Shown: one piece after another, positions 6,654 to 20,664 of the stretch
Layout: each line of letters opens with the position of its first letter
How positions within the stretch are numbered: position 1 is the first letter of the stretch
Assembly: GCA_009692185.1 (NCBI GenBank)
Contig: SHZT01000002.1
Location: 1 to 33,454 of the forward strand
Source: Gemmatimonadota bacterium
Lineage (GTDB): Bacteria > Gemmatimonadota > Gemmatimonadetes > Gemmatimonadales > GWC2-71-9
Direction of reading: 5' to 3'
Length of the DNA: 33,454 bases
Program-made: the position numbers and the translations under genes
Notes under the pieces: model-generated
The model's input: the letters and a program-made list of their open reading frames with translations, nothing else
Database searches by the model: none
What the model was told of the DNA's origin: nothing

Positions 6654-8486
6654 GTGAGTCCCGCGTCGGCCGGGATCACCTACCTCGACGGCCGCCGGCT
6701 CAGCCGGTCCCTGCTGGCGGCCGCCGACTGGGTCGATTCTCGACGCGAGGACCTGAACCGCATCAACGTCTTCCCCGTTCCCGACGGGGATACCGGCACC
6801 AATTTCGCCATGACCCTGCGCGCCGGCGCCGAAGCAGTTCGCCATCTGGAGGACGCGTCGCTGGCCACCGTCGCCTCCGCGGCGGCAGAGGCCTGCATGG
6901 ACTCGGCTCGCGGCAACTCCGGGCTCCTCCTCTCCCAGTTCTTCCTCGGCTTTCGCGACGCGATCGGCGACCGTGAAACGCTCGATACCCACGAACTCGC
7001 CGCGGCAATCCGGCGCGGCGCCGACCAGCTCGGAGCGGCGCTGGACCAGCCGGTGGAAGGCACGATCCTCACAGTATGCCGGGACGTGGCCGCAGCGGCG
7101 GAAGTCTCCGCCGGGAAGACGTCGCGTCACGATGAGCTCCTGCGGGGCGTTCTCCAGAGCGCGTGGGAAAGCCTGGAACGCACCCCCGACCTCCTGCTCG
7201 TCCTCCGTGAAGCCGGGGTGGTGGACGCTGGAGCCAAGGGCTTCGTGCTCGCCATCGAGGGCGTGGTCAGGATGATGGACGGCCGAACCGGCACAGAGAG
7301 CAATGGAAAGGCGCGCGACGCCGCGCCGCCGCCGGTGCTCCGCTCCGCGGCCGCGTCGGCGAAGGTCGCCAAGGAGCGGGATTTCGGGTTCTGCACCGAG
7401 GTGCTGGTCCGTTCCGATCGCCTCCCGGCGACGGCCACGGTGCGCGCGGCGCTTCGTCCGCTGGGCGGGTCGATCGTCGTCCTGAGCACGGGCAAGGCGC
7501 TCAAGGTGCATGTCCACACCGACACCCCGGAACAGGTGTTCGAGCTGGCACGGCGCTGGGGCACCGTCGAGAAAACCAAGGCAGAAAACGTGCGGGCCCA
7601 GCACCGCGCCCTCGCGGGGCGGGCGGGTATCACTGTGGTCGTGGACTCCACCTGCGACCTGCCCGATGCCTCACTCGAGCGCTACGGCATAGAAGTCGTG
7701 CCAATCCAGGTCATTGCGGGGGACCGCACCTACCTGGACCGGGTGGACCTGCGGCCCGACGAGATCTATGCCCTGGCCGAAACCGCGCCGCAGCCACTCA
7801 CCACCTCCCAGCCGGCCCCCGGCGCGTGGGCGCGGGCCTTCCGGGACACCCGGGCGGGCGGGAGCGAGGTCTTCTGCCTGACGCTGGCCGGGGCCCTCTC
7901 GGGCTCGTACACGTCGGCGCAGGCGGCCGCCCGGTCCATCACCGGTGGTGGTGTGTCCGTGTTTGACTCCCGGACGACATCGCTCGGTCTTGGGCTGCTG
8001 GCAATCCGGGCCGCAGAATTGGTGGCCGAAGGGAAAAACGCGCCGGAGATCGCGACCGAGCTCACGCGAATCCGCGATCAGTCCAGCGGCATCTTCACGG
8101 TGGACACGTTCGACCAGCTGCTCCGGTCCGGTCGGGTCGGCCGGGCCCGCGCGTGGCTGGGTTCCGTGCTCCGGGTAAAGCCGATCCTGGAAATCGAGGC
8201 CAGCGGGCAGATTGTCCCGCTCGAGCGCGTGCGCGGACAGGAGGCGCTGGTCCGGCGCGTGCTCGACCTCCTGGATGAGCGCCTCACCCCGCGGCCACGG
8301 TCGCTCCGGTTCGGCGTGGTTCATGCGGACGCCGAGGCGGTCGCGACGCGGATTCGCGACGATCTGGCAAGCCGGTTCGGGAAGGTCGAATGCCTCGTGA
8401 GCCCGGTCACGCCCGCGATCGGCGTACACACCGGGCGCGGTGCCTGGGGTGTGTTCTACCAGGTTGAAGACCAATTGGGGAACTAA
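6654..8486 (+). CDS. Fused fatty-acid-kinase-like protein (DAK2/FakA plus DegV/FakB)
   Basis: 610 residues from a GTG at 6654. Residues about 10-210 are a DAK2 (FakA N-terminal) kinase domain with the Mg-ATP motif NVFPVPDGDTGTN, acidic residues D44 and D46, and SARGNSGLLLSQ. Residues about 235-315 match the FakA middle domain, with C247 in FCTE and H286/H288 in HVHT, positions that bind zinc in FakA. From about 324 to the end is a complete DegV/FakB domain: VVVDSTCDLPD, TSQPAPG, LSGSYTSAQAAA, SGRVGRARAWLG and a final GVHTGRGAWG. In Firmicutes FakA phosphorylates fatty acids held by a separate FakB to give acyl-phosphate for phospholipid synthesis. Here both parts are one chain, so exogenous or recycled fatty-acid activation is the likely role. 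This is inferred, not proven. Confidence 0.88.
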   Translation: MSPASAGITYLDGRRLSRSLLAAADWVDSRREDLNRINVFPVPDGDTGTNFAMTLRAGAEAVRHLEDASLATVASAAAEACMDSARGNSGLLLSQFFLGFRDAIGDRETLDTHELAAAIRRGADQLGAALDQPVEGTILTVCRDVAAAAEVSAGKTSRHDELLRGVLQSAWESLERTPDLLLVLREAGVVDAGAKGFVLAIEGVVRMMDGRTGTESNGKARDAAPPPVLRSAAASAKVAKERDFGFCTEVLVRSDRLPATATVRAALRPLGGSIVVLSTGKALKVHVHTDTPEQVFELARRWGTVEKTKAENVRAQHRALAGRAGITVVVDSTCDLPDASLERYGIEVVPIQVIAGDRTYLDRVDLRPDEIYALAETAPQPLTTSQPAPGAWARAFRDTRAGGSEVFCLTLAGALSGSYTSAQAAARSITGGGVSVFDSRTTSLGLGLLAIRAAELVAEGKNAPEIATELTRIRDQSSGIFTVDTFDQLLRSGRVGRARAWLGSVLRVKPILEIEASGQIVPLERVRGQEALVRRVLDLLDERLTPRPRSLRFGVVHADAEAVATRIRDDLASRFGKVECLVSPVTPAIGVHTGRGAWGVFYQVEDQLGN

Positions 8487-8506
8487 ACGGTGCGGAAGCC
8501 ATTATT

Positions 8507-8875
8507 ATGGGTATAGAGCGGAAGCAGCAGCCGCCGACCGAGATTTGGCTCGCGGTCGAAGCGCTGGAAGCGCGCAAGGCGCAGGATGTGGTGGTGCTGG
8601 ACCTGCGAGGATTGTGCGATGCGACCGATTATTTCATCATCGCGTCTGGAACCTCAGACACCCACGTGCGCGCGCTCGCCGATAGTGTGATCGAGGCGGA
8701 GCGCGTGGGGGGCCAGCGACCGCATCACGTCGAGGGGCTCCCGGCAGGCCGGTGGGTGTTGCTCGACTTCGTGGACTTCGTGGTTCACGTGTTTCATCCG
8801 ACGCTGAGGGGGTTTTACCAGTTGGAGCGGCTGTGGGCGGATGCGCCCGCCGTTTCCACGGGCTCGTCCCGGTAG
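8507..8875 (+). CDS. rsfS: Ribosomal silencing factor RsfS
   Basis: 122 residues. RsfS (Iojap/YbeB family) binds L14 on the 50S subunit and blocks subunit joining in poor nutrient conditions. The family core is clear: ALEARKAQDVVVLDLRGLCDATDYFIIASGTSDTHVRALAD, then GRWVLLDFVDFVVHVFHPTLRGFYQLERLW. A short Ser/Pro-containing tail follows. The ATG at 8507 is preceded by GCGGAAG and lies 20 bases after the preceding stop. Its stop TAG (8873-8875) is part of the AGGGGG that serves as ribosome-binding site for the next gene. Confidence 0.94.
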   Translation: MGIERKQQPPTEIWLAVEALEARKAQDVVVLDLRGLCDATDYFIIASGTSDTHVRALADSVIEAERVGGQRPHHVEGLPAGRWVLLDFVDFVVHVFHPTLRGFYQLERLWADAPAVSTGSSR

Positions 8876-8882
8876 GGGGCAC

Positions 8883-11800
8883 ATGCGCAATCGTCTGGCG
8901 GTCCTGGCTCTTCTTGCCCTGTTCGGCGTTCCCAGCCTGCAGGCACAATACTTCGGGCAGAACAAGGTGCAGTACCGGCACCTGAAATACGCGGTCATCC
9001 AAACCGAGCATTTCGAGATCCACTACTACCAGGGCCTGCGCGACGCGGCGCTGGATGCGGGTCGCATGGCCGAGCGGGCCTACGCCCGCATGTCCCGCGT
9101 GCTGAACCATCAATACCGCGAGCGGCAGCCCATCATCCTGTTCGCGTCAAACACCGAATTTCAGCAGACCAACGTGACGGACATCCCGGAGGGGGTGGGC
9201 GGCGTAACCGATCCGTTCCGCCACCGCGTCATGCTGCCCTTCACCGGCGCGTACAAGGACTTCGAGCACGTCCTCATGCACGAGATGGCGCACCAGTTCC
9301 AGTTCGACGTGTTCGCGCGCGGCCGGGTCGGCGCGGGCCTGCAGCGGCTGGTCTCGATCAACCCGCCGCTCTGGTTCATGGAGGGAATGGCCGAGTACCT
9401 CTCCGTCGGCCCGATCGACGCGCACACGACCATGTGGCTCCGCGACGCCGCACTCGAGGGCACGCTGCCGACGATCGAGCAGCTGACCATCGACCCGCGG
9501 GTGTTCCCGTATCGGTTCGGGCACGCCTTGTGGGCCTATATCGGCGAACGGTGGGGCGACGAGGTGGTCGGCGAGATCCTGCACGGCGTGTCCACGTCGG
9601 GCATCGAGACCAGCTTTCGCCGCGCCCTGGGCATCACGCTGGACCAGTTGTCCGATGACTGGCGGGACGCCGTACAACGCACCTACCTGCCTGAGATCAC
9701 CGATCTCAAGATGGCCCGGCACTTCTCAAAGCCACTGCTCAACGAGAAGAATTCCACCGGCTCGCTGCACATTTCGCCCGCGCTTTCCTACGATGGAAAA
9801 CAGGTCGCGTATTTCAGTGAGGGGACGACGTTCTTCATCGACCTCTACCTCGCCGATGGCGAGACGGGGCGAGTGAAGAAGCGGCTGATCAAGAGCGCGT
9901 TCCGGAGTGATTTCGAGAGCCTGCGATTCCTCTACTCGGCTGGTTCCTGGTCGCCGGATGGACACTATTTCGCGATCGCCGTGAAGAATGGCGGACGCGA
10001 CGACCTGGTCATCTACGACGTCAAGCGGGGTACGGTCCACCAGCGGATCACGGTCGAGTTCAACGGCCTCACCAACCCCACGTGGTCGCCCGATGGCAAG
10101 AAGCTCGTCTTCACCGGGTACGACGGCGGATGGTCGGACCTCTTTATCGTGGACGTCGACGGCCAGAACCTCCAGCGCCTGACCAACGACCGCTACGCGG
10201 AGTTGCACCCCGTGTGGTCCCCCGACGGCAAGACCATCGCCTTCGCGACCGACCGCGGCCCGGATTCCGACGTCGAGAACCTCAAGTTCAGCAGCCTCAA
10301 GATCGCCTTGTACAACTTGGAGACCCACGGCATCGAAGTCCTCCCATCCATGCCGGGCGGGAACGTCAATCCGCAGTGGGCTCCGGACGGCCGGTCCATC
10401 GCATTCGTCTCGGATCGCACGGGCACATACAACCTGTTCCTGCATGACCTCGGCGACTCCCGGACGTACCAGCTGACCAACGTGTACACGGGCATCGCGA
10501 GCTTCTCGAACCTGTCTCCGGTCATTTCCTGGGCCCGCGGGGCCGACCGCATGGTCCTCACGTACTACGAAAAGGGCGGATACAACGTCTACTCGATCGA
10601 CAACCCGCGTTCGCTGAAGACCCGACCGTACGAGCTGCCGGTGGGAGGAGTCCCGATCGCGTCGCTCATCAAGGTGGGGTCGCCGCGAATGGCTCCGCCC
10701 TCCCGCGTCGCGACGACCAGTCCCGACGGGTCGCTCAAGTCCTCGGTGCCGGTAGCGGTAACGGTGGTCGGCCAGGACGGAGTGCCCGTTCCGCCGGAGC
10801 CCGTCCCGGCAGGGACGCCGGCGGCGGCCGCCGCGGACACGACGCCCCAGGCACCGCCGGCCGGGTCCATGTACCGGGCAGCGGGAGGCTTCCGGCCGTC
10901 GGCGGAAACGCCGGAAGCGCCGGCCCCCGGGTCAGAACCGGTATCGGTGAAGGCGCTGCTGGATAGCGCCACGCTCGCGTTGCCGGACACCGCTGACTTT
11001 GCGTTCCGCAAGTATTCCCCGAAGCTCGCGACGGACTTCATTGCCCGGCCGAGCATCGGGTACTCGCGCGACAACTTCGGCAACGGCGTGTTCGGCGGGT
11101 CGGCCATTTCGTTCTCCGACATCCTGAATAACCGCCAGCTCCTGCTGGCGCTGCAGTTGAACGGGCGAATCGAAGAAGCCCAGGCGGCGGCGCTCTATTC
11201 CAACATCGGCCGGCGAACCAGCTGGTCGGTGGGATACCAGCAGCAACCGCTCTTCTTCTTCTCGGGCAGCGAATTCGGGCTCGACCGCCGGGGCCTGGCG
11301 ACGTTCACCACTCACCTCGAGCGGTACCTATATCACCTGGGGGTGGTTTCCATTTCCCGCCCCTTCACCCGTTTCCGCCGGGTGGAGGTCGGAGTACGCG
11401 CGGTGAACGTCGCGCGGGCCACGCAGGATTTCGTGCAGTTTTACGACCCGCGGACTTCGCTGGTCTACGACGCCCAGATCGAGACCACCGAGCTGGACAA
11501 CGCCAACTACGTGCAGCCGCTGGTGGCCCTGGTGTTCGACAACTCGGTTTCGACGTGGACCGGGCCGGCGATGGGTCAGCGCTCGCGTCTCGAGTACGCG
11601 CCTGCATTCGGGGCCTGGCAGTTCCACGAAGTGGTTGGCGACCTGCGGCGGTATGACGTCGTGTTCTCGCCGGTAACCCTGGCCACCCGGGCCATGCTCT
11701 TCGGGCGCTTCGGGCGGAACACGGATCAGTTCCGCTATTTCGTCGGCTCCCCGGACTTCATGCGGGGCTACACCGCCGGGTCGTTCCGCCGAAACGAGTG

Positions 11801-12182
11801 TCTGTCTGAACGGCCGGAGGCCCAGATCCTCTGCGACGACCTGAACCAGCTGATCGGCTCGCGCATCGCGCTGGTGAACGCCGAGCTGCGGTTCCCGCTG
11901 ATCCAGCAACTCAACCTGTCCGTCCTGCCGATCGGGTTCCCGCCGATCGAGGGCGCCATCTTCCTCGACATCGGAATGGCCTGGAATGCCGGCAACAGCA
12001 TCGTGTGGCGGCGGGCGGAGGGCGATGACAAGAACACGGTACGCCAGCCGCTCAAGGCCTGGGGAATGTCCATTCGAGCAAATATGGGCGGGTTCCTGAT
12101 CTTGCGCGTGGAATACACCCAGCCGCTGGACCGCGGCACCTTCCACCCCTACTGGACCGTCAGCATCGGCCCGACGTTCTAG
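8883..12182 (+). CDS. Secreted gluzincin metallopeptidase with TolB-like propeller and Omp85-like C-terminal barrel
   Basis: 1099 residues. The ATG at 8883 follows AGGGGG and gives a clean signal peptide ending LQAQ. Residues about 20-260 are a peptidase-MA-like domain with HEMAH (H133, E134, H137) and WFMEGMAEY, where E167 is the expected third zinc ligand. Residues about 290-590 carry PD40/TolB propeller repeats: SYDGKQVAYF, SPDGHYFAIA, SPDGKKLVFTG, SPDGKTIAFATD and APDGRSIAFVSD. A Pro/Ala/Thr-rich linker spans about 620-710. The last 380 residues look like an outer-membrane barrel: alternating beta strands, RGYTAGS, GSRIALVNAELRFPL as in BamA/TamA barrels, and a terminal aromatic GPTF. I infer an outer-membrane protein carrying the protease and propeller in the periplasm or outside. 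The substrate is unknown. It is the last gene before a strong terminator. Confidence 0.88.
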   Translation: MRNRLAVLALLALFGVPSLQAQYFGQNKVQYRHLKYAVIQTEHFEIHYYQGLRDAALDAGRMAERAYARMSRVLNHQYRERQPIILFASNTEFQQTNVTDIPEGVGGVTDPFRHRVMLPFTGAYKDFEHVLMHEMAHQFQFDVFARGRVGAGLQRLVSINPPLWFMEGMAEYLSVGPIDAHTTMWLRDAALEGTLPTIEQLTIDPRVFPYRFGHALWAYIGERWGDEVVGEILHGVSTSGIETSFRRALGITLDQLSDDWRDAVQRTYLPEITDLKMARHFSKPLLNEKNSTGSLHISPALSYDGKQVAYFSEGTTFFIDLYLADGETGRVKKRLIKSAFRSDFESLRFLYSAGSWSPDGHYFAIAVKNGGRDDLVIYDVKRGTVHQRITVEFNGLTNPTWSPDGKKLVFTGYDGGWSDLFIVDVDGQNLQRLTNDRYAELHPVWSPDGKTIAFATDRGPDSDVENLKFSSLKIALYNLETHGIEVLPSMPGGNVNPQWAPDGRSIAFVSDRTGTYNLFLHDLGDSRTYQLTNVYTGIASFSNLSPVISWARGADRMVLTYYEKGGYNVYSIDNPRSLKTRPYELPVGGVPIASLIKVGSPRMAPPSRVATTSPDGSLKSSVPVAVTVVGQDGVPVPPEPVPAGTPAAAAADTTPQAPPAGSMYRAAGGFRPSAETPEAPAPGSEPVSVKALLDSATLALPDTADFAFRKYSPKLATDFIARPSIGYSRDNFGNGVFGGSAISFSDILNNRQLLLALQLNGRIEEAQAAALYSNIGRRTSWSVGYQQQPLFFFSGSEFGLDRRGLATFTTHLERYLYHLGVVSISRPFTRFRRVEVGVRAVNVARATQDFVQFYDPRTSLVYDAQIETTELDNANYVQPLVALVFDNSVSTWTGPAMGQRSRLEYAPAFGAWQFHEVVGDLRRYDVVFSPVTLATRAMLFGRFGRNTDQFRYFVGSPDFMRGYTAGSFRRNECLSERPEAQILCDDLNQLIGSRIALVNAELRFPLIQQLNLSVLPIGFPPIEGAIFLDIGMAWNAGNSIVWRRAEGDDKNTVRQPLKAWGMSIRANMGGFLILRVEYTQPLDRGTFHPYWTVSIGPTF

Positions 12183-12187
12183 CGAGG

Positions 12188-12211
12188 GAACGAGCGAACG
12201 GCGGAACGCCT
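12188..12211 (+). repeat. Octamer-periodic GAACG repeat forming a terminator arm
   Basis: GAACG recurs at 12188, 12196 and 12204, exactly 8 bases apart. The second and third copies make the left arm of the terminator hairpin. This is the same 8-base period as the repeats at 3241 and 22475, though the unit differs and only five of the eight positions are fixed. Confidence 0.6.
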
Positions 12212-12232
12212 TCGTTCCGCCGTTCTTTTTTT
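12196..12232 (+). terminator. Strong intrinsic terminator after the barrel-protease gene
   Basis: A perfect 13-bp stem, GAACGGCGGAACG (12196-12208) against its complement (12213-12225), with a 4-base loop CCTT and a run of seven T (12226-12232). It starts 13 bases after the stop codon at 12182. It closes the plus-strand run that began with prs and separates it from the SPOR-smc run. Confidence 0.95.
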
Positions 12233-12283
12233 GGCCCACGCCGGGACTCCCACCCGGGCTCGGCCGCGCTAGCTTTCCCTCTC

Positions 12284-13669
12284 GTGGCAGCCTCCCGAAT
12301 CGCGCCCCTGCTGATCCTTTCCACCGGCCTCGCGGCATGCGGGTCCGGGTCAGACGGGAACCCCATAAAAGCGGCATTTGCCCAGCGCCCCGCCTCGCGG
12401 TTGAGCGTACAGCCGGTGGCGTTCCGCCTCCCGGCGGTGAGCGGGTCTCCCGTGCGCCTGTACCGTCTCCCCCGGTTCGACGAGGTCGCCCGGCGGTTCG
12501 AGACGCCGGGCTTTACGGCCGCGCGGGTCGTTTCTTTTTCGGACGATGACGACCAACTCTACGTGTTGTCGGTGCGGGGGACGCTCATGTCGCTTGACAT
12601 GGGCACCGGCCGCTCGCGCAGCATTGATTCCGGCGTGGTCGCGGCGACCGCCGGGCCCGACGATGCCCCGCACGTGACGCACGCCGACGGGAGCGTGGCG
12701 GTGGTCGAACACCGGGTGCCCAAGCTCTGGCCCACCAAGCTGACCGGCGAACCCACGGTCCTGCTGGGCGCCGGCCGTGGCGTCCTCCTGGCCGACTCGC
12801 GGAATGGAGCACGGCGAACCCTCATTGCGGCATTCGCCAATCGCGCGGCCATCACCCAGCCGATGCCGGACGGGCCCGCGGTAGCCTCGCGCTGGGGGGA
12901 CCTGGTCGCGATCGGCGCGGACTCCGGCGTGGTGATCCTGGATCCGCTGAAAGTGCAGCCTCCCGAATTCATCGGCTTGCCCGAGCGCCCCAAGGCCGTG
13001 GGATTCTCCCCGTCGGGACACCGGGTCTACGCCATCCACGGATCGCACCTGGTCGCGGCGGACCGCTACTCCGGCAAGGTCGTCAACTCGCGGGACCTCC
13101 CGGGCGAGGCTTCCGACCTCCGGGTTGATCCGCTGGGGCGTCTCCTCCTGGTCCGCCCCACCCGGGGCGATTCGGTCTGGATCGTGGATGCCGCAACCAA
13201 TCGCTATATCGCGACGGTCGGCGGTTCGTGGAGCTGGGATCTCCCCGCGGTAGCACCCGATGGCACGGTGCTCACGCGCCAGGGCTCCGACCTCGTGGCG
13301 CTGGCCGGCGACTCCCTCACACCGACCGGCAGGGTGCGGGGCACGCCCAACGACCGGTGGCTCGCGGTCACGTGGGACCCGCGGCGCCCGGTCATCGAAC
13401 TCGAACAGGCGGCGATCACGTCGGATTCGGGGAGCGTCTTGTATGTGCAGGTGAGTTCCAGCTCCAACGAAGCGTGGGCGCAGGATTTCGCGACTAACCT
13501 GAAGCGCGCGGGCCTCAACGCGTCGGTGCTTTCGCCCAGCGGGCCGGATGACAGCTACCGCGTCGTCCTGGGCCCCTACGCGAGCCGCGAAGCCGCCGAG
13601 GACGCGGGCCGAAAGCTGGGCCGCTCGTTCTGGGTGTTCTCCCGCGACGAGGCACCGTCCACGCCATGA
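12284..13669 (+). CDS. Lipoprotein with beta-propeller-like body and C-terminal SPOR domain
   Basis: 461 residues from a GTG at 12284. The N-terminus is a lipoprotein signal with lipobox LAAC (C19), followed by a Gly/Ser linker. Residues about 60-380 are a repeated beta-rich body that reads like a WD40/YVTN-type propeller (for example FSPSGHRVYAIHGSHLVAADRYSG, DAATNRYIATVGGSW). Residues 386-461 are a SPOR domain (LYVQVSSSSNE...YRVVLGPYASREAAEDAGRKL), which binds glycan strands stripped of stem peptides at division sites. No ribosome-binding site is seen; TAGCTT at 12270-12275 lies so close that a leaderless transcript is possible. The stop overlaps the next ATG (ATGA at 13666-13669). Likely role: envelope protein recruited to the septum. 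Confidence 0.85.
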   Translation: MAASRIAPLLILSTGLAACGSGSDGNPIKAAFAQRPASRLSVQPVAFRLPAVSGSPVRLYRLPRFDEVARRFETPGFTAARVVSFSDDDDQLYVLSVRGTLMSLDMGTGRSRSIDSGVVAATAGPDDAPHVTHADGSVAVVEHRVPKLWPTKLTGEPTVLLGAGRGVLLADSRNGARRTLIAAFANRAAITQPMPDGPAVASRWGDLVAIGADSGVVILDPLKVQPPEFIGLPERPKAVGFSPSGHRVYAIHGSHLVAADRYSGKVVNSRDLPGEASDLRVDPLGRLLLVRPTRGDSVWIVDAATNRYIATVGGSWSWDLPAVAPDGTVLTRQGSDLVALAGDSLTPTGRVRGTPNDRWLAVTWDPRRPVIELEQAAITSDSGSVLYVQVSSSSNEAWAQDFATNLKRAGLNASVLSPSGPDDSYRVVLGPYASREAAEDAGRKLGRSFWVFSRDEAPSTP

Positions 13670-14964
13670 CGGTCAGGGTCCTCGCGCCCCTGCGACTCGG
13701 GGAGATGGTGCCGCCCCTGTTCGCCGACCGACACCTCGTCATCCTCGTTCCCGCCACTGCCAACACCGAATGGGCTGTCCAGGGGGCGTGGGCGTTCGCG
13801 CGCGCGGCCTCCACCGGAAGCCGCAGTGTCCTCCTGATCGACCTTTCGGCCGACGGCCCCATGCTCGACTCGGGCGCGACCGGCCGGGCGTCGCGCGGGA
13901 TCGCCGACGTGTTCCTCACCGACGAGCCGCTCAACGAGGCCGCCAGCCCCCAGGACGCCCCCGGATTGTTCTACATCCAGCGGGGGGCGCGGGCAGGCGG
14001 GTTCGAACCGGTCTGGGGAAGCGACCGGTGGGCCAAGCTGGCGCGCGGCTTTGCCAGCGAAGGCGCCTTGCTCCTCCTGTTCGCCCCGCCGGGAGCGCTG
14101 TCGTATTTCCCGGTCGAGCCGGACGGCCTCGTGGTCCTTGCCCCGCAGGGATACGACCCGGCCGACGGGACGTTCCCGCATATCGCCAAGCGGGTCGAGC
14201 AGGGAACGCCACTCCTCGCGGTCGTGGGCGAAGAAACGAAACGCCCAAGCGGGGGCGTCCGAACGAGCAGCGCCTCCCAGCGGCCACCAGCCCGACGGAG
14301 TTCGGCGGGCGTGCGCCGGCCCGCGGCCGGCGGGGGACGCTTCCGGTACGTCACTGCCGCCCTCGTGGCGCTGGCGGCGGTGGCGAGCGCGGTCGCGGTC
14401 TGGGCGGGCCGCCCCAGCGCGGCGGTCACCCCTGCGCGCGGACAGGCGTACGTCGCCGCGCCGCTCGATGCGGATGCCGGCGCCGGGGACTCGCTCTACT
14501 ACTCGGTGCAGGTCGCGGCGTTCAACACGCTGGAACAGGCCATGACGCGCGCCGCCGAGCTGGAAGGCGATGGCGCCCCCGCGATCGTGACGCCGGTCCG
14601 GATGGGCGGCCAGGGAACCTGGTACCGGGTCCTCACGGGAGCCCTGCCATCCGCCCGGGCCGCGGATTCCCTGCTCCAATCCCTCTGGCAATCCCGCCGG
14701 ATCGAGCGGCCACAAGGCACGATCCTGCGGACATCCGAGACATACCGTGTGGGGCGGCGGGTGCCCGTGGCCGACGCGGAAGTCGATGCGCGGGGGCTAC
14801 GAGCCCGCGGTATCCCGGCGTATATTGTTGGGGCGCCCGACGGCACCGCACGCGTCTACGTCGGGGCATTCGACCTCCCGGAACAGGCGCACGCCGTCGA
14901 CTCACTGCTCACCACCGCCGGGCTCACCGGCACACTCGTGCAGCGCATGGGGACCACGCCATGA
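13666..14964 (+). CDS. Degenerate ParA/MinD-like membrane protein with two periplasmic SPOR domains
   Basis: 432 residues. Residues about 20-190 resemble a ParA/MinD-type Rossmann domain: ILVPATANTEWAVQGAWAFARAAS followed by SRSVLLIDLSADGPML, where the Walker A' strand is kept, but the P-loop lysines and glycines of GKGGVGKT are gone, so ATP binding is unlikely. A basic Pro/Ser/Arg-rich stretch (192-226) precedes one membrane helix (about 228-247). Outside the membrane are two SPOR domains, about 279-345 (YYSVQVAAFNTLEQA...WYRVLTGAL) and about 372-428 (ARGIPAYIVG...RVYVGAFDLPEQA). The ATG overlaps the preceding stop, and its own stop overlaps the smc ATG (ATGA at 14961-14964). A link between septal peptidoglycan and the chromosome machinery is inferred from this coupling. 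Confidence 0.82.
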   Translation: MTVRVLAPLRLGEMVPPLFADRHLVILVPATANTEWAVQGAWAFARAASTGSRSVLLIDLSADGPMLDSGATGRASRGIADVFLTDEPLNEAASPQDAPGLFYIQRGARAGGFEPVWGSDRWAKLARGFASEGALLLLFAPPGALSYFPVEPDGLVVLAPQGYDPADGTFPHIAKRVEQGTPLLAVVGEETKRPSGGVRTSSASQRPPARRSSAGVRRPAAGGGRFRYVTAALVALAAVASAVAVWAGRPSAAVTPARGQAYVAAPLDADAGAGDSLYYSVQVAAFNTLEQAMTRAAELEGDGAPAIVTPVRMGGQGTWYRVLTGALPSARAADSLLQSLWQSRRIERPQGTILRTSETYRVGRRVPVADAEVDARGLRARGIPAYIVGAPDGTARVYVGAFDLPEQAHAVDSLLTTAGLTGTLVQRMGTTP

Positions 14965-17900: not shown

Positions 17901-18425
17901 CTCGTATCGGCGCGGGCGTCGCTCCAGCAGGCCGTCCTGGAAATCGACCAGACCGCCAAGGGGATGTTCGTCGAGACGTTCACGTCTATCCGGACGCATT
18001 TCCACTCGGTGTTCCGCACGCTGTTTGATGGCGGCGAGTGCGACGTGCGGTTGCTGGACGAAAGCGATCCGCTCGGAAGCGAGATCGAGATCCACGCGGC
18101 GCCGCGCGGCAAGCGCACGCAGCGCATCCACCTGCTGTCGTCCGGCGAGCGGGCGCTGGTCGCCATTTCCCTGCTCTTCTCGATCTACCTTACCAAGCCC
18201 AGCCCGTTCTGCGTGCTGGACGAAGTGGATGCCCCGCTCGATGACGCCAACGTGTCCCGTTTCGTGCGCCTGCTGGACGAGTTCAAGACCGGCACGCAGT
18301 TCATCGTGATCACCCACAACCCGCGCACGATGCAGGTTGCCGACGCGGTGTACGGCGTCACGATGCAGGAGCCGGGAGTGTCCAGCATCGTGGGCGTGCG
18401 GCTGGGTGAGGTTGAGACCGTTTGA
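14961..18425 (+). CDS. smc: Chromosome segregation protein SMC
   Basis: 1154 residues. SMC forms the ring-shaped condensin core with ScpA/ScpB. The N-terminal head starts MRLTRLQLSGFKSFAD and has Walker A GPNGCGKS at 31-38. Two long coiled coils rich in Arg, Glu, Ala and Gln (about 165-500 and 660-980) flank a hinge near 520-640 (GEGAVLGPLSDFVQV...). The C-terminal head has the ABC signature LSSGERALVA (1059 onward) and Walker B VLDEVDAPLDD with D1087 and E1088. The ATG at 14961 is preferred over any upstream start because it begins the conserved head and overlaps the previous stop. The open frame runs far upstream but only as a shadow of the SPOR genes. GC-rich Ala/Arg coding produces long spurious antisense frames here. 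Confidence 0.97.
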   Translation: MRLTRLQLSGFKSFADTVELVINDGVTAVVGPNGCGKSNISDAVRWVLGEQRARILRGARMEEVIFQGSSKRRAINIAEVSLHFDNSAGTLPVAYSEVVVTRRLSRSGQSEYLLNQNPARLRDVQDLLRGTGMGSDAGVVIEAGMIERLLSERAEERRALFEEAAGIGFYRDRKDSTQRRLEKTGEDLQRLDDVISEVQTQVRSLARQRGRAERHKKLMDDRFEVVMTLARRELALADAQAAALQARRAELQVTIPQARDAVADRERDREARVQDRATAEVRRVEVERRLSATRVEVERLEGDLNLAAERFRNAAARRTRAQEERAQADARAAQAQRERDAARAEGQAAEAARKSVQTELDLRAASEEQARTGLAGQREQVRELESGLQKLVEQLAALDAERAAAEREAEDLAPQVGRAHVRRAELEREGRSTRQQVEAMRTQVAEREREEQEATAALERARSALAAAREAEATIRIQRRNAEEPLAQLGARRGALEKLERERVGLAPAARQLLDAREQFGEGAVLGPLSDFVQVTAHGAQLAERLLGDWLHAMLVRDADVIPRIREWHRGAQPGPLVLLPVAPGPVQRGAPAQAAPISALAPADAWVRELVRDHEVIDDGAVRRANGAVFLPGAGESSGPLTRRAELDALRGDIATAEALVADLERRAGEAARAHTEAEQTLRTVDARAEHTRIQHREVLTAYDDALRVSQRVERERSEGEETRARLVSRSEALAARLKQIASDLSEGRVERERIEAGLATQRAGLGDLEAAQEAARERRVHWQVEEAQVSAREQGARERETRAEEAWAAARAEIEALDTETGTLNREVEELERTRAQWTDALAERRVGAQQLEAAATAGEEGLHRGQEALAAAETALEQARTRFHSLGEESHRLELQEAEALGSRRILLERMEAEWQKPAADLLAATPDVEGEGDHLREEAERLAKEIEGIGPVNALAVDEHAEEVKRALFLTTQREDLVSARASLQQAVLEIDQTAKGMFVETFTSIRTHFHSVFRTLFDGGECDVRLLDESDPLGSEIEIHAAPRGKRTQRIHLLSSGERALVAISLLFSIYLTKPSPFCVLDEVDAPLDDANVSRFVRLLDEFKTGTQFIVITHNPRTMQVADAVYGVTMQEPGVSSIVGVRLGEVETV

Positions 18426-20664
18426 CCTGAAGTCCGCAGTCCTCGCACTGGCCGCGCTCCTGACTCCCCTCGCTGCTGGTGCGCAGCAGCCCGCCGTGTC
18501 ACCGTTCGTCCAGCGACTCCTGTCCCGCGACACCACGCTCACCGTCTGGCTTTTTGTTCGTCCGGAGCGCCCGCTCGCTGATGTGACCGTGCTGGTCAGC
18601 CAGGCAGGCGGCCAGGTTCGGACGGCCAGCCAGTGGCTGCACGCGGTTTCCGCAAACCTCCCGACCGGCGCGTTGCGTTCACTCCGCCGGCGTCCCGAGT
18701 TGGAGCGCATTCAACTGGTTGCGCGGTTCGTCAGGCGACCGGAGCCGGCGGTCCAGGCGGTCGCCCCCTTCGCGCCGTCACCAGCGCCGGGCGCGGATGA
18801 TTTCGGGCCGTCCATCATGCCCTACAACCGGCTCAACCTCATGCCGCTCGTCAACCGCGGATTCCGCGGCCAGGGCGTGAAGATCGCGATCCTCGACACC
18901 GGGTTCGAGACCGGATTACCGGTGTTCGCCTCAACGACGGTTCTCGCTCAACGTGATTTCATCAACCACGACGGCGTGGTGCGGGAACAACCGGGAGAAT
19001 GCTCGAACTTTCATGGCACATCCACCTGGTCATTGCTCGGCGGCAACCAGCAGGGATTCATCCTTGGAATTGCCCGGGACGCCCAGTACATCCTGGCGAG
19101 GACCGAGGACGCCTGCCGCGAGGTGCGAACCGAGGAGGACAACTACGTGGCGGCACTCGAGTGGGCCGACTCGCTGGGCGCCAAGGTCGTCTCGTCCAGC
19201 CTCGGCTATTTCGACTTCGACAGTGGTTTCACGTACACCAAGGCCCAGCTTAACGGCGATTTCGCGGTTACCACCATCGCCGTAGACATTGCCGCACAGA
19301 AAGGCATCACGGTCGTCACCGCCGCGGGGAACGAAGGGCCCGGAACGCAGACACTCGGGACCCCGGCAGATGCGGATTCCGCCATCGTGGTCGGCGCGGT
19401 GGACTCGCTCGGGACCCTGGTGTTGTTCAGCTCGCGCGGCCCGACCGGCGACGTGAGGATCAAGCCGGACGTGACGGCGCCCGGGTTCAGGGTCTGGGTG
19501 GCGACTCCGACCGGTTTCAATCGGGCAGACGGCACTTCGTTCAGCACGCCCATCACCGCGGGCTCGGCGGCACTGCTCAAGCAGATCCACCCCACCTTCG
19601 GACCGATCGATATCCGGGACGCCCTGCGCGCGGCCGGCTCGAATGCGCGGACTCCAGACTCGAACCGCGGGTGGGGCACGCCGGATGTCGCCGCGGCCGC
19701 CACGTTTCCGCGGGGCATCATCGTGCAGAACCCGCGCGACTCCATTCTCACGAGCGTGACGCCGGACTTTTCCTGGGCAACGCCGGACGTGCCCGTGTTC
19801 GGCCTCCCCGCCCGCTACCGGCTCACGGTGACCACCGACGCAGCCTTCGCCACGGCGCCGGTCCTGGACACCACACTCACCGGCACGACCGTCGTGATGC
19901 CCCGAGCCCTTCGCCCGCTGGCCACCATGTTCTTCCGGATCATCGCCACCGGGGCGGATTCCGCGTCCCTCACGCTCGCCAGCGCCCAGTTCGTTTCTCC
20001 TCCCTGGACGAAGCTCGAAACGCTCGGCGGGCCCGGAAACGCGAACATTCGCGCCACCCAGCCGACGTTTACCTGGAGCTCGCCGGCGGTGACCGCCCCT
20101 GCCGGGCCGTTCACGTACGACGTCCGCGTCGTCCGCGCCGGCAACGGGGCGGTTGAACTGGATGTCCGCGACCTCACGACGACGACGCTGGTGCCGCCCC
20201 GGCCGCTCGCCTACAACGTCGCCTACCGGTGGCTCGTCACCGCGCGCCTAGGCACGGACACCGCGACCACCGCGAGCCCGGGGACGTTCACGGTGATCGA
20301 GGACGTATTCCCCACCCTCACCCTGCTGTTCCAGAACTTTCCGAACCCGTTCCCCGACCGGAATACGGGCCGGCGCAGTACCTGCATCTGGTTCGACCTG
20401 GCGACGAGCGGGCGGGTGCGGCTGGACATCATGGACATGCGTGGGCACGTGGTCCGCAGTCTCGTTCCCGGATCAGCCTTCGACCCCGAATTGACGGCGG
20501 GACACTACGGCCGCTCCGGCGCCGACTGTGACCCGGCGCTGGAGTGGGATGGCACGACCGTGAACGGGACGATGGTCCCCCAAGGGATCTACATTGCCAA
20601 GCTCGTCACGCCGGATGGGACCTCGTTCAAGCGGATCGTGTTCCTGGGCCCCGGGTTGTTCTGA
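18406..20664 (+). CDS. Secreted subtilisin-like serine protease (S8) with C-terminal sorting-type domain
   Basis: About 752 residues counted from a GTG at 18406; TTG at 18412 and CTG at 18427 (giving MKSAVLALAALL) are alternatives and the start is uncertain. A signal peptide ends AAGAQQ. An I9-like propeptide is at about 40-120. The S8 catalytic triad is intact: D164 in AILDTGF, H203 in NFHGTS, S378 in DGTSFSTP, with oxyanion N309 in AAGNEGPG. Two beta-rich Ig/fibronectin-like regions follow (about 450-640). The last 110 residues, from FQNFPNPFPDRN to the end, match the FlgD-Ig/type-IX-style C-terminal domain common on secreted proteins of the FCB group. It overlaps the end of smc by up to 20 bases and its stop is one base before the next GTG. 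Confidence 0.9.
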   Translation: MRLRPFDLKSAVLALAALLTPLAAGAQQPAVSPFVQRLLSRDTTLTVWLFVRPERPLADVTVLVSQAGGQVRTASQWLHAVSANLPTGALRSLRRRPELERIQLVARFVRRPEPAVQAVAPFAPSPAPGADDFGPSIMPYNRLNLMPLVNRGFRGQGVKIAILDTGFETGLPVFASTTVLAQRDFINHDGVVREQPGECSNFHGTSTWSLLGGNQQGFILGIARDAQYILARTEDACREVRTEEDNYVAALEWADSLGAKVVSSSLGYFDFDSGFTYTKAQLNGDFAVTTIAVDIAAQKGITVVTAAGNEGPGTQTLGTPADADSAIVVGAVDSLGTLVLFSSRGPTGDVRIKPDVTAPGFRVWVATPTGFNRADGTSFSTPITAGSAALLKQIHPTFGPIDIRDALRAAGSNARTPDSNRGWGTPDVAAAATFPRGIIVQNPRDSILTSVTPDFSWATPDVPVFGLPARYRLTVTTDAAFATAPVLDTTLTGTTVVMPRALRPLATMFFRIIATGADSASLTLASAQFVSPPWTKLETLGGPGNANIRATQPTFTWSSPAVTAPAGPFTYDVRVVRAGNGAVELDVRDLTTTTLVPPRPLAYNVAYRWLVTARLGTDTATTASPGTFTVIEDVFPTLTLLFQNFPNPFPDRNTGRRSTCIWFDLATSGRVRLDIMDMRGHVVRSLVPGSAFDPELTAGHYGRSGADCDPALEWDGTTVNGTMVPQGIYIAKLVTPDGTSFKRIVFLGPGLF

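What the first reader, a model, noticed from the sequence alone, without database searches (positions are those of the whole stretch)
8883..12182. Zinc peptidase, TolB-like propeller and outer-membrane barrel in one protein
The C-terminal 380 residues have RGY and GSRIALVNAELRFPL motifs of Omp85 barrels, while the N-terminal half is an intact gluzincin with HEMAH and EGMAEY and a PD40 propeller. A barrel-tethered protease with a propeller could process or insert outer-membrane proteins, or act as a surface protease. The mix of a TolB-like propeller and a BamA-like barrel on one chain is notable.
Basis: partly seen in the sequence, partly recalled or inferred. Interest (0 to 1): 0.55.

Follow-up and report, generated by a model that had tools for sequence, protein, structure and literature searches.

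The report
Outer-membrane-tethered metallopeptidase with propeller
Bacteria of the phylum Gemmatimonadota carry a protein that appears to anchor a zinc peptidase and a propeller-shaped domain to the outer membrane through a barrel; the propeller-plus-barrel plan was already published, and the added point is the conserved peptidase on it.

Summary
ORF 8883-12182 (1099 aa) has a signal peptide, a gluzincin-type peptidase (HEMAH 133-137, third ligand E167), a TolB-like propeller (~285-580), a Pro/Ala-rich linker and a C-terminal Omp85-family domain (~705-1099). No POTRA was found. Relatives occur in 147 of 150 Gemmatimonadota genomes searched; the window's genome has three paralogues. The window's copy directly follows rsfS at the end of a run of translation genes and precedes a strong terminator-like hairpin.

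The genome separately encodes BamA, a second POTRA-Omp85 and TolB-, Pal- and DegP-like proteins, so this is probably neither the insertase nor TolB. The peptidase is more conserved than the barrel in 778 of 780 pairs, and a Salinibacter plasmid has a 40%-identical version without a barrel. I read it as a periplasmic metallopeptidase whose propeller gates or docks substrate and whose barrel is an anchor. The periplasmic side is inferred from barrel topology and the PlpD precedent.

Propeller-Omp85 proteins were described as a subfamily in 2014 (Heinz & Lithgow), so this is a new variant of a known kind. The structure models were poor for barrel and peptidase; strand number is not settled.

The parts
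8883..12182 (+). whole gene, 1099 aa, ATG start just after a G-rich stretch that could serve as ribosome-binding site; 7 bases separate it from rsfS
8883..8948 (+). signal peptide, residues 1-22, type I by eye, no lipobox cysteine
   Evidence: read by eye, no signal-peptide predictor was available
8952..9731 (+). metallopeptidase domain, residues 24-283, MA clan / gluzincin type; weak matches to Peptidase_MA_2, BSP, M9 collagenase
9279..9293 (+). HEMAH zinc motif, residues 133-137
   Evidence: H, E, H identical in 40 of 40 family rows
9381..9398 (+). EGMAEY, residues 167-172; E167 is the likely third zinc ligand (HExxH-x29-E)
   Evidence: E167 in 40 of 40 rows; E171 in 38 of 40
9735..10622 (+). 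TolB-like PD40 beta-propeller, residues 285-580
   Evidence: fold match to TolB structures Z 24-25, rmsd 2.5-3.0, 242-251 residues aligned
10635..10994 (+). Pro/Ala-rich linker, residues 585-704; in 40 rows the stretch corresponding to 586-716 is 58-140 residues long
10995..12179 (+). Omp85-family C-terminal domain, residues 705-1099, ending in an OMP-type terminal Phe
   Evidence: terminal F in 38 of 40 rows, Y in 2
11763..11771 (+). RGY, residues 961-963, at the place of the Omp85 loop-6 motif
   Evidence: R 39, G 40, Y 30 of 40 rows; aligned to the RGF/RGY of Omp85 relatives
11799..11834 (+). Cys973 and Cys984, the only cysteines of the mature protein, in the stretch after RGY; possible disulfide
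   Evidence: C in 40 of 40 and 39 of 40 rows; disulfide inferred
12196..12232 (+). terminator-like hairpin (13 pairs, 4-base loop) with a run of seven T
8507..8875 (+). rsfS, ribosome silencing factor, immediate upstream neighbour, conserved position

Best explanation
A secreted zinc metallopeptidase held at the outer membrane. After export through Sec, the C-terminal Omp85-type barrel inserts in the outer membrane, and the peptidase and propeller hang in the periplasm on a flexible Pro/Ala-rich linker. The propeller either admits only certain substrates to the active site, as propellers do in S9 peptidases, or docks a periplasmic partner, as TolB's does with Pal. The likely job is constitutive processing or clearance of periplasmic or outer-membrane proteins or peptides. 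Shown: domain content by sequence, conserved catalytic residues, no detectable POTRA, presence across the phylum, gene position. Inferred: zinc binding and activity, barrel insertion, periplasmic side, propeller role, substrate.
For: HExxH residues are kept in 40 of 40 family rows, E167 in 40 of 40, and HExxH with the downstream Glu-Gly in 20 of 20 further paralogue or deep loci. Peptidase and propeller are more conserved than the barrel: mean pairwise identity 61%, 57% and 46%, linker 35%; the peptidase beats the barrel in 778 of 780 pairs and the propeller in 773 of 780. A Salinibacter ruber plasmid protein of 633 aa is 40.5% identical over residues 16-567 and ends without a barrel; the next gene encodes a serine carboxypeptidase-like protein, not a barrel. 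So peptidase + propeller looks like the unit kept together and the barrel like an anchor. Omp85 assignment: (27 of 41 members). PlpD keeps its N-terminal enzyme domain in the periplasm (abstract). rsfS lies upstream on the same strand in 42 of 42 family loci that hold upstream sequence.
Against: No activity, zinc or localisation data. The peptidase does not reach any curated Pfam cut-off (best E 0.00048 for the window domain alone). Model confidence is poor for barrel and peptidase (barrel alone mean pLDDT 37; full chain 50, with the peptidase part mostly under 60), so the folds and the topology rest on sequence homology. The hhalign match covers 135 columns (residues about 894-1040), not the whole barrel, and 14 of 41 family C-termini do not match PF01103 at E<=0.01. 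Whole-protein hmmscan did not list Omp85 for paralogue B, although the six-frame search did at 38.6 bits; paralogue C is below cut-off in both (19 and 17.2 bits). Only one barrel-less relative was seen.
Confidence: 0.6

Rival explanations
1. An outer-membrane assembly or translocation factor, a fusion resembling BamA with a BamB/TolB-like propeller (the suggestion of Heinz & Lithgow for WD40-Omp85 proteins); the peptidase trims or checks its clients.
For: Omp85 superfamily membership; published hypothesis; presence across the phylum and a position after translation genes.
Against: No POTRA detected, though the same search finds POTRA in two other Omp85 proteins of the genome. A bona fide BamA is present (372.6 bits, cut-off 297.15). 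The barrel is the least conserved of the three folded domains.
Confidence: 0.15
2. A surface protease: the peptidase and propeller are passed through or around the barrel and face outwards.
For: Salinibacter has a barrel-less relative that starts with a signal peptide by eye, so secretion of the unit is conceivable; PlpD was once thought to do this (abstract).
Against: The PlpD domain was then found to be exclusively periplasmic (abstract). Two folded domains of about 550 residues would have to cross the membrane; Omp85 barrels place their N-terminal domains in the periplasm (established knowledge).
Confidence: 0.13
3. A non-catalytic scaffold in which the peptidase fold only binds peptides or peptidoglycan and the propeller recruits Tol-Pal-like partners.
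For: Peptidase family scores are low; Pal-like and TolB-like genes exist as possible partners.
Against: Zinc ligands and the catalytic Glu are kept in every family row and every further paralogue locus examined, which a dead enzyme would not need.
Confidence: 0.07

Closest known systems
WD40-Omp85 subfamily (Heinz & Lithgow 2014, PMC4104836)
   Same: TolB-like beta-propeller N-terminal to an Omp85 barrel, no POTRA (section 10)
   Different: In the main text 'peptidase' and 'gemmatimon' occur 0 times and the WD40 passage names no enzyme domain; the supplementary tables could not be read, so whether these very proteins were in that cluster is unknown
'Metallo' Omp85 subfamily of the same paper
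   Same: Described as metalloprotease domain + Omp85 barrel
   Different: Their domain is PF00149, which I recall to be a calcineurin-like phosphoesterase rather than a peptidase; the present domain is a HExxH gluzincin
PlpD of Pseudomonas aeruginosa (PMC11116518; abstract and one passage seen)
   Same: Enzyme domain N-terminal to an Omp85 barrel, periplasmic
   Different: Patatin-like domain and one POTRA in PlpD; metallopeptidase, propeller and no detected POTRA here
TolB
   Same: Propeller fold, Z 24-25 to solved TolB structures
   Different: 132 bits against the TolB equivalog cut-off of 343; the match starts at position 191 of 418; a separate TolB-like gene near a Pal-like gene exists in the genome
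Microbial collagenases (M9) and basic secretory proteins
   Same: HExxH...E arrangement; profile matches to PDB 7wss (E 0.00055) and 7esi (E 0.0079)
   Different: Below curated cut-offs; no collagenase accessory domains listed by Pfam
Salinibacter ruber plasmid 'basic secretory protein-like protein' WP_118831798.1
   Same: 40.5% identical peptidase + propeller unit
   Different: Ends after the propeller; no barrel

Membership tests
Omp85/TpsB superfamily | Omp85 barrel domain (the paper's defining feature) | tested here: met
   by sequence: PF01103 30.2 bits over cut-off 24; 27 of 41 family members match at E<=0.01, best 2e-15; profile match to 29 Omp85 relatives of the phylum, prob 96%, E 3e-9 over 135 columns
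Omp85/TpsB superfamily | 16 transmembrane strands | tested here: inconclusive
   AlphaFold mean pLDDT 37 and 50; Foldseek rows for the barrel model are largely Omp85 barrels but none at E<=0.001 and from a low-confidence model; amphipathicity scan not discriminating
Omp85/TpsB superfamily | at least one POTRA (required by some definitions) | tested here: not met
   no POTRA match at E<=1; a search of the same library at E<=0.01 finds POTRA in two other Omp85 proteins of the genome. Absence in WD40 and noNterm subfamilies is described
BamA / TamA | match to the NCBI equivalog model (TIGR03303 / NF047950) | tested here: not met
   not among the 7 matches of P0001 at E<=0.01; met by the C8 protein for TIGR03303 at 372.6 bits
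WD40-Omp85 subfamily | TolB-like propeller followed by Omp85 barrel without POTRA | tested here: met
WD40-Omp85 subfamily | membership of the published sequence cluster | not testable with these tools
TolB | TolB equivalog score | tested here: not met
   132.4 bits, cut-off 343.15
Gluzincin / peptidase clan MA | HExxH plus a downstream Glu as third ligand, conserved | tested here: met
   H133, E134, H137 in 40 of 40; E167 in 40 of 40
Peptidase M9 / BSP (PF04450) / Peptidase_MA_2 | curated Pfam score | tested here: not met
   all below cut-off for the window protein, though 30, 35 and 20 of 36 members match M9, BSP and MA_2 at E<=0.01

The most novel reading that the evidence does not exclude
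A one-chain outer-membrane export device of Gemmatimonadota: the peptidase matures a periplasmic substrate chosen by the propeller, and the POTRA-less Omp85 pore passes the product to the surface, so processing and export are coupled in one polypeptide, present in three specialised copies.
Probability: 0.06. Interest if true: 0.75.

Novelty: new variant of a known kind. Interest (0 to 1): 0.36.

Why it matters
It gives the little-studied propeller-Omp85 kind of protein a predicted enzyme activity and a host group in which it is found in nearly every genome searched. Together with PlpD it supports the idea that Omp85 barrels were reused as anchors for periplasmic enzymes. It is testable in a cultured Gemmatimonadota species by gene removal and by an assay of the soluble peptidase + propeller part.

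Tried and rejected
Barrel structure: two AlphaFold jobs with six-sequence alignments gave poor barrels; in the full chain, residues 791-950 reach block means of 46-77. The Foldseek list for the barrel model (50 rows shown of 737) is about 38-40 Omp85 chains by their titles (BamA, TamA, Toc75, FhaC, Sam50), but also holds autotransporter, OmpA and other barrels, and nothing passes E 0.001; I give it little weight. The full-chain fold searches list mainly propeller-containing chains, aligned over the propeller, and test neither peptidase nor barrel. An amphipathic-strand count gave 22 peaks for the barrel, 22 for the Omp85 set and 17 for the propeller, so it does not discriminate.

PDB profile search with the barrel found one weak entry, 9ccg (E 0.0026). 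The idea that this is the genome's only BamA, TolB or periplasmic protease was rejected: BamA, TolB-like, Pal-like, DegP-like and M48 genes exist elsewhere (the DegP-, Pal- and TolB-like ones are below NCBI's equivalog cut-offs). One operon with the downstream SPOR genes was rejected as the simple reading because of the hairpin at 12196-12232; that scan found 5 terminator-like sites where shuffles give 3.4 on average, and I single this one out for its 13 pairs and T run. A SPOR1 homologue follows the gene in many relatives all the same. No sigma-70-type promoter was found in 8000-13800. Presence outside Gemmatimonadota was tested only in plasmids.

Rows dropped. A3 holds 41 of the 44 available rows (without L003, L037, L042); A4 holds 36 of 43 (without L032, L042, L043, L044, L048, L049, L056). 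Tree: also without L004 and L020; L020 was left out without good reason. rsfS count: without L037, L045, L046, which lack upstream sequence. The loci are best matches, not a random draw. One search scored only five candidates a genome, so its three misses may be false.

Full report
What is there. The ORF at 8883-12182 encodes 1099 residues. ATG 8883 is preferred over the in-frame ATG 8841 because it starts a plain signal peptide (by eye) and follows a G-rich stretch; 8841 would overlap rsfS. Pfam finds PD40 (E 3.6e-28) and Omp85 (30.2 bits, cut-off 24; residues 951-1084). With the N-terminal domain alone, weak matches to Peptidase_MA_2, BSP, DUF6055 and M9 appear, and a family profile matches solved microbial collagenases (7wss, E 0.00055). 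The metal motif is HExxH-x29-E.

Conservation. Relatives of the window protein occur in 41 of 41 genomes of the closest set, its own included (E<=1e-30), and in 147 of 150 genomes drawn from the phylum, its own included (E<=1e-40). The six named loci found are from Gemmatimonadetes or its subgroups. In 40 rows H133, E134 and H137 are identical, Arg and Gly of the RGY motif are kept in 39 and 40, Cys973 in 40 and Cys984 in 39, and the last residue is Phe in 38 and Tyr in 2; E167 is in 40 of 40. The peptidase (mean pairwise identity 61%) and propeller (57%) are more conserved than the barrel (46%) and linker (35%).

Omp85 evidence. Beyond the window protein, 27 of 41 family C-termini match PF01103 at E<=0.01 and 14 do not; in one family member, L019, the match spans positions 71-309 of 325. 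hhalign of the C-terminal profile against 29 Omp85 relatives of the genome's C5 protein gives 96% and E 3e-9 over 135 columns that include the RGY/RGF motif and the ELRFP stretch; the peptidase and propeller profiles give 0.1% and 0.2%. The first part of the barrel rests on context.

POTRA. None was found in this protein. The same library finds three stretches in the C5 protein and four in the C8 protein of the genome. C8 passes NCBI's BamA cut-off (372.6 against 297.15). A 434-residue Omp85 protein with no POTRA match also exists (C29).

Paralogues and history. The genome holds three such chains: C12 (window), C23 and C1. All have HExxH and a downstream Glu-Gly. The C1 copy's Omp85 match is below cut-off. 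A 61-row tree of the peptidase + propeller part (the Salinibacter protein entered twice) separates the C1 type (7 rows, 100/100) from all others, and within these a C23-type clade (13 rows, 100/100). The window's type is spread over several branches and I did not test its monophyly. The Salinibacter protein falls inside the C23-type clade, which suggests gene transfer or a root that I cannot fix. That protein has no barrel.

Neighbourhood. Upstream in the same direction lie ribose-phosphate diphosphokinase, L25, peptidyl-tRNA hydrolase, S6, a 73-residue ORF that reads as S18 (recalled, not searched), DUF2232, L9, a FakA-DegV fusion and rsfS. rsfS is upstream on the same strand in 42 of 42 family loci that hold upstream sequence, one record being counted twice. 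A 13-pair hairpin with seven T follows the gene. This looks like the last gene of a housekeeping operon, hence probably constitutive expression (inference).

Function. The enzyme residues are kept, the enzyme half is the best conserved part, a relative does without the barrel, and PlpD shows that an Omp85 barrel can carry a periplasmic enzyme (PMC11116518; abstract, outline and one passage seen). I therefore favour an anchored periplasmic metallopeptidase with a substrate-gating or partner-docking propeller. S9 peptidases, in which a propeller guards the active site (established knowledge), appear among the fold matches. TolB docking to Pal is the other model; the genome has a Pal-like gene close to its TolB-like gene on the same strand. 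The two Cys after RGY may form a disulfide; I recall that E. coli BamA has a loop-6 disulfide too.

Literature. Heinz & Lithgow 2014 (PMC4104836; abstract, sections 10 and 13 and passages read) define ten subfamilies including WD40-Omp85, liken the propeller to TolB and suggest a BamA-BamB-like role. The main text has no 'peptidase', 'PD40' or 'Gemmatimon'. In the held library 'Omp85' + 'PD40' gives no paper and 'Omp85' + 'Gemmatimon' gives two, seen only as listings. Listings (parts of 201 and 17 papers for the first two) showed, by title and abstract start, nothing on this peptidase-bearing chain. So I found no description of it in those searches; unlisted hits, most subscription papers, preprints and supplements were not covered.

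Verdict. Real, correctly read at the domain level, conserved across the phylum, and a variant of a published architecture; the enzyme domain and the distribution are the added value.

Noticed in passing
window 6654-8486 (+): DAK2 + FakA-like middle domain + DegV in one 610-residue chain: fatty-acid kinase catalytic and binding subunits look fused.
   Followed up: partly
window 12284-13669 and 13666-14964 (+): Two adjacent SPOR-domain proteins beyond the hairpin; a homologue of the first follows the gene in many relatives.
   Followed up: partly
window 18337-20664 (+): Subtilase (S8) gene.
   Followed up: no
L094 (C1 paralogue) and L101-L106: The C1-type paralogue ends in ...FFFGFNY or a close variant rather than ...F (7 of 7 loci), and the own-genome copy's Omp85 match is below cut-off; its barrel has diverged.
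   Followed up: no
mature N-terminus, residues 23-31 (window 8949-8975): YFGxNK(V/I/A)QY at the start of the mature protein is shared by the window protein, both paralogues of its genome and the Salinibacter relative; role unknown.
   Followed up: no
PMC4104836, section 10: The paper calls PF00149 a metalloprotease domain; I recall PF00149 as a metallophosphoesterase, so its 'Metallo' subfamily may be mislabelled.
   Followed up: no
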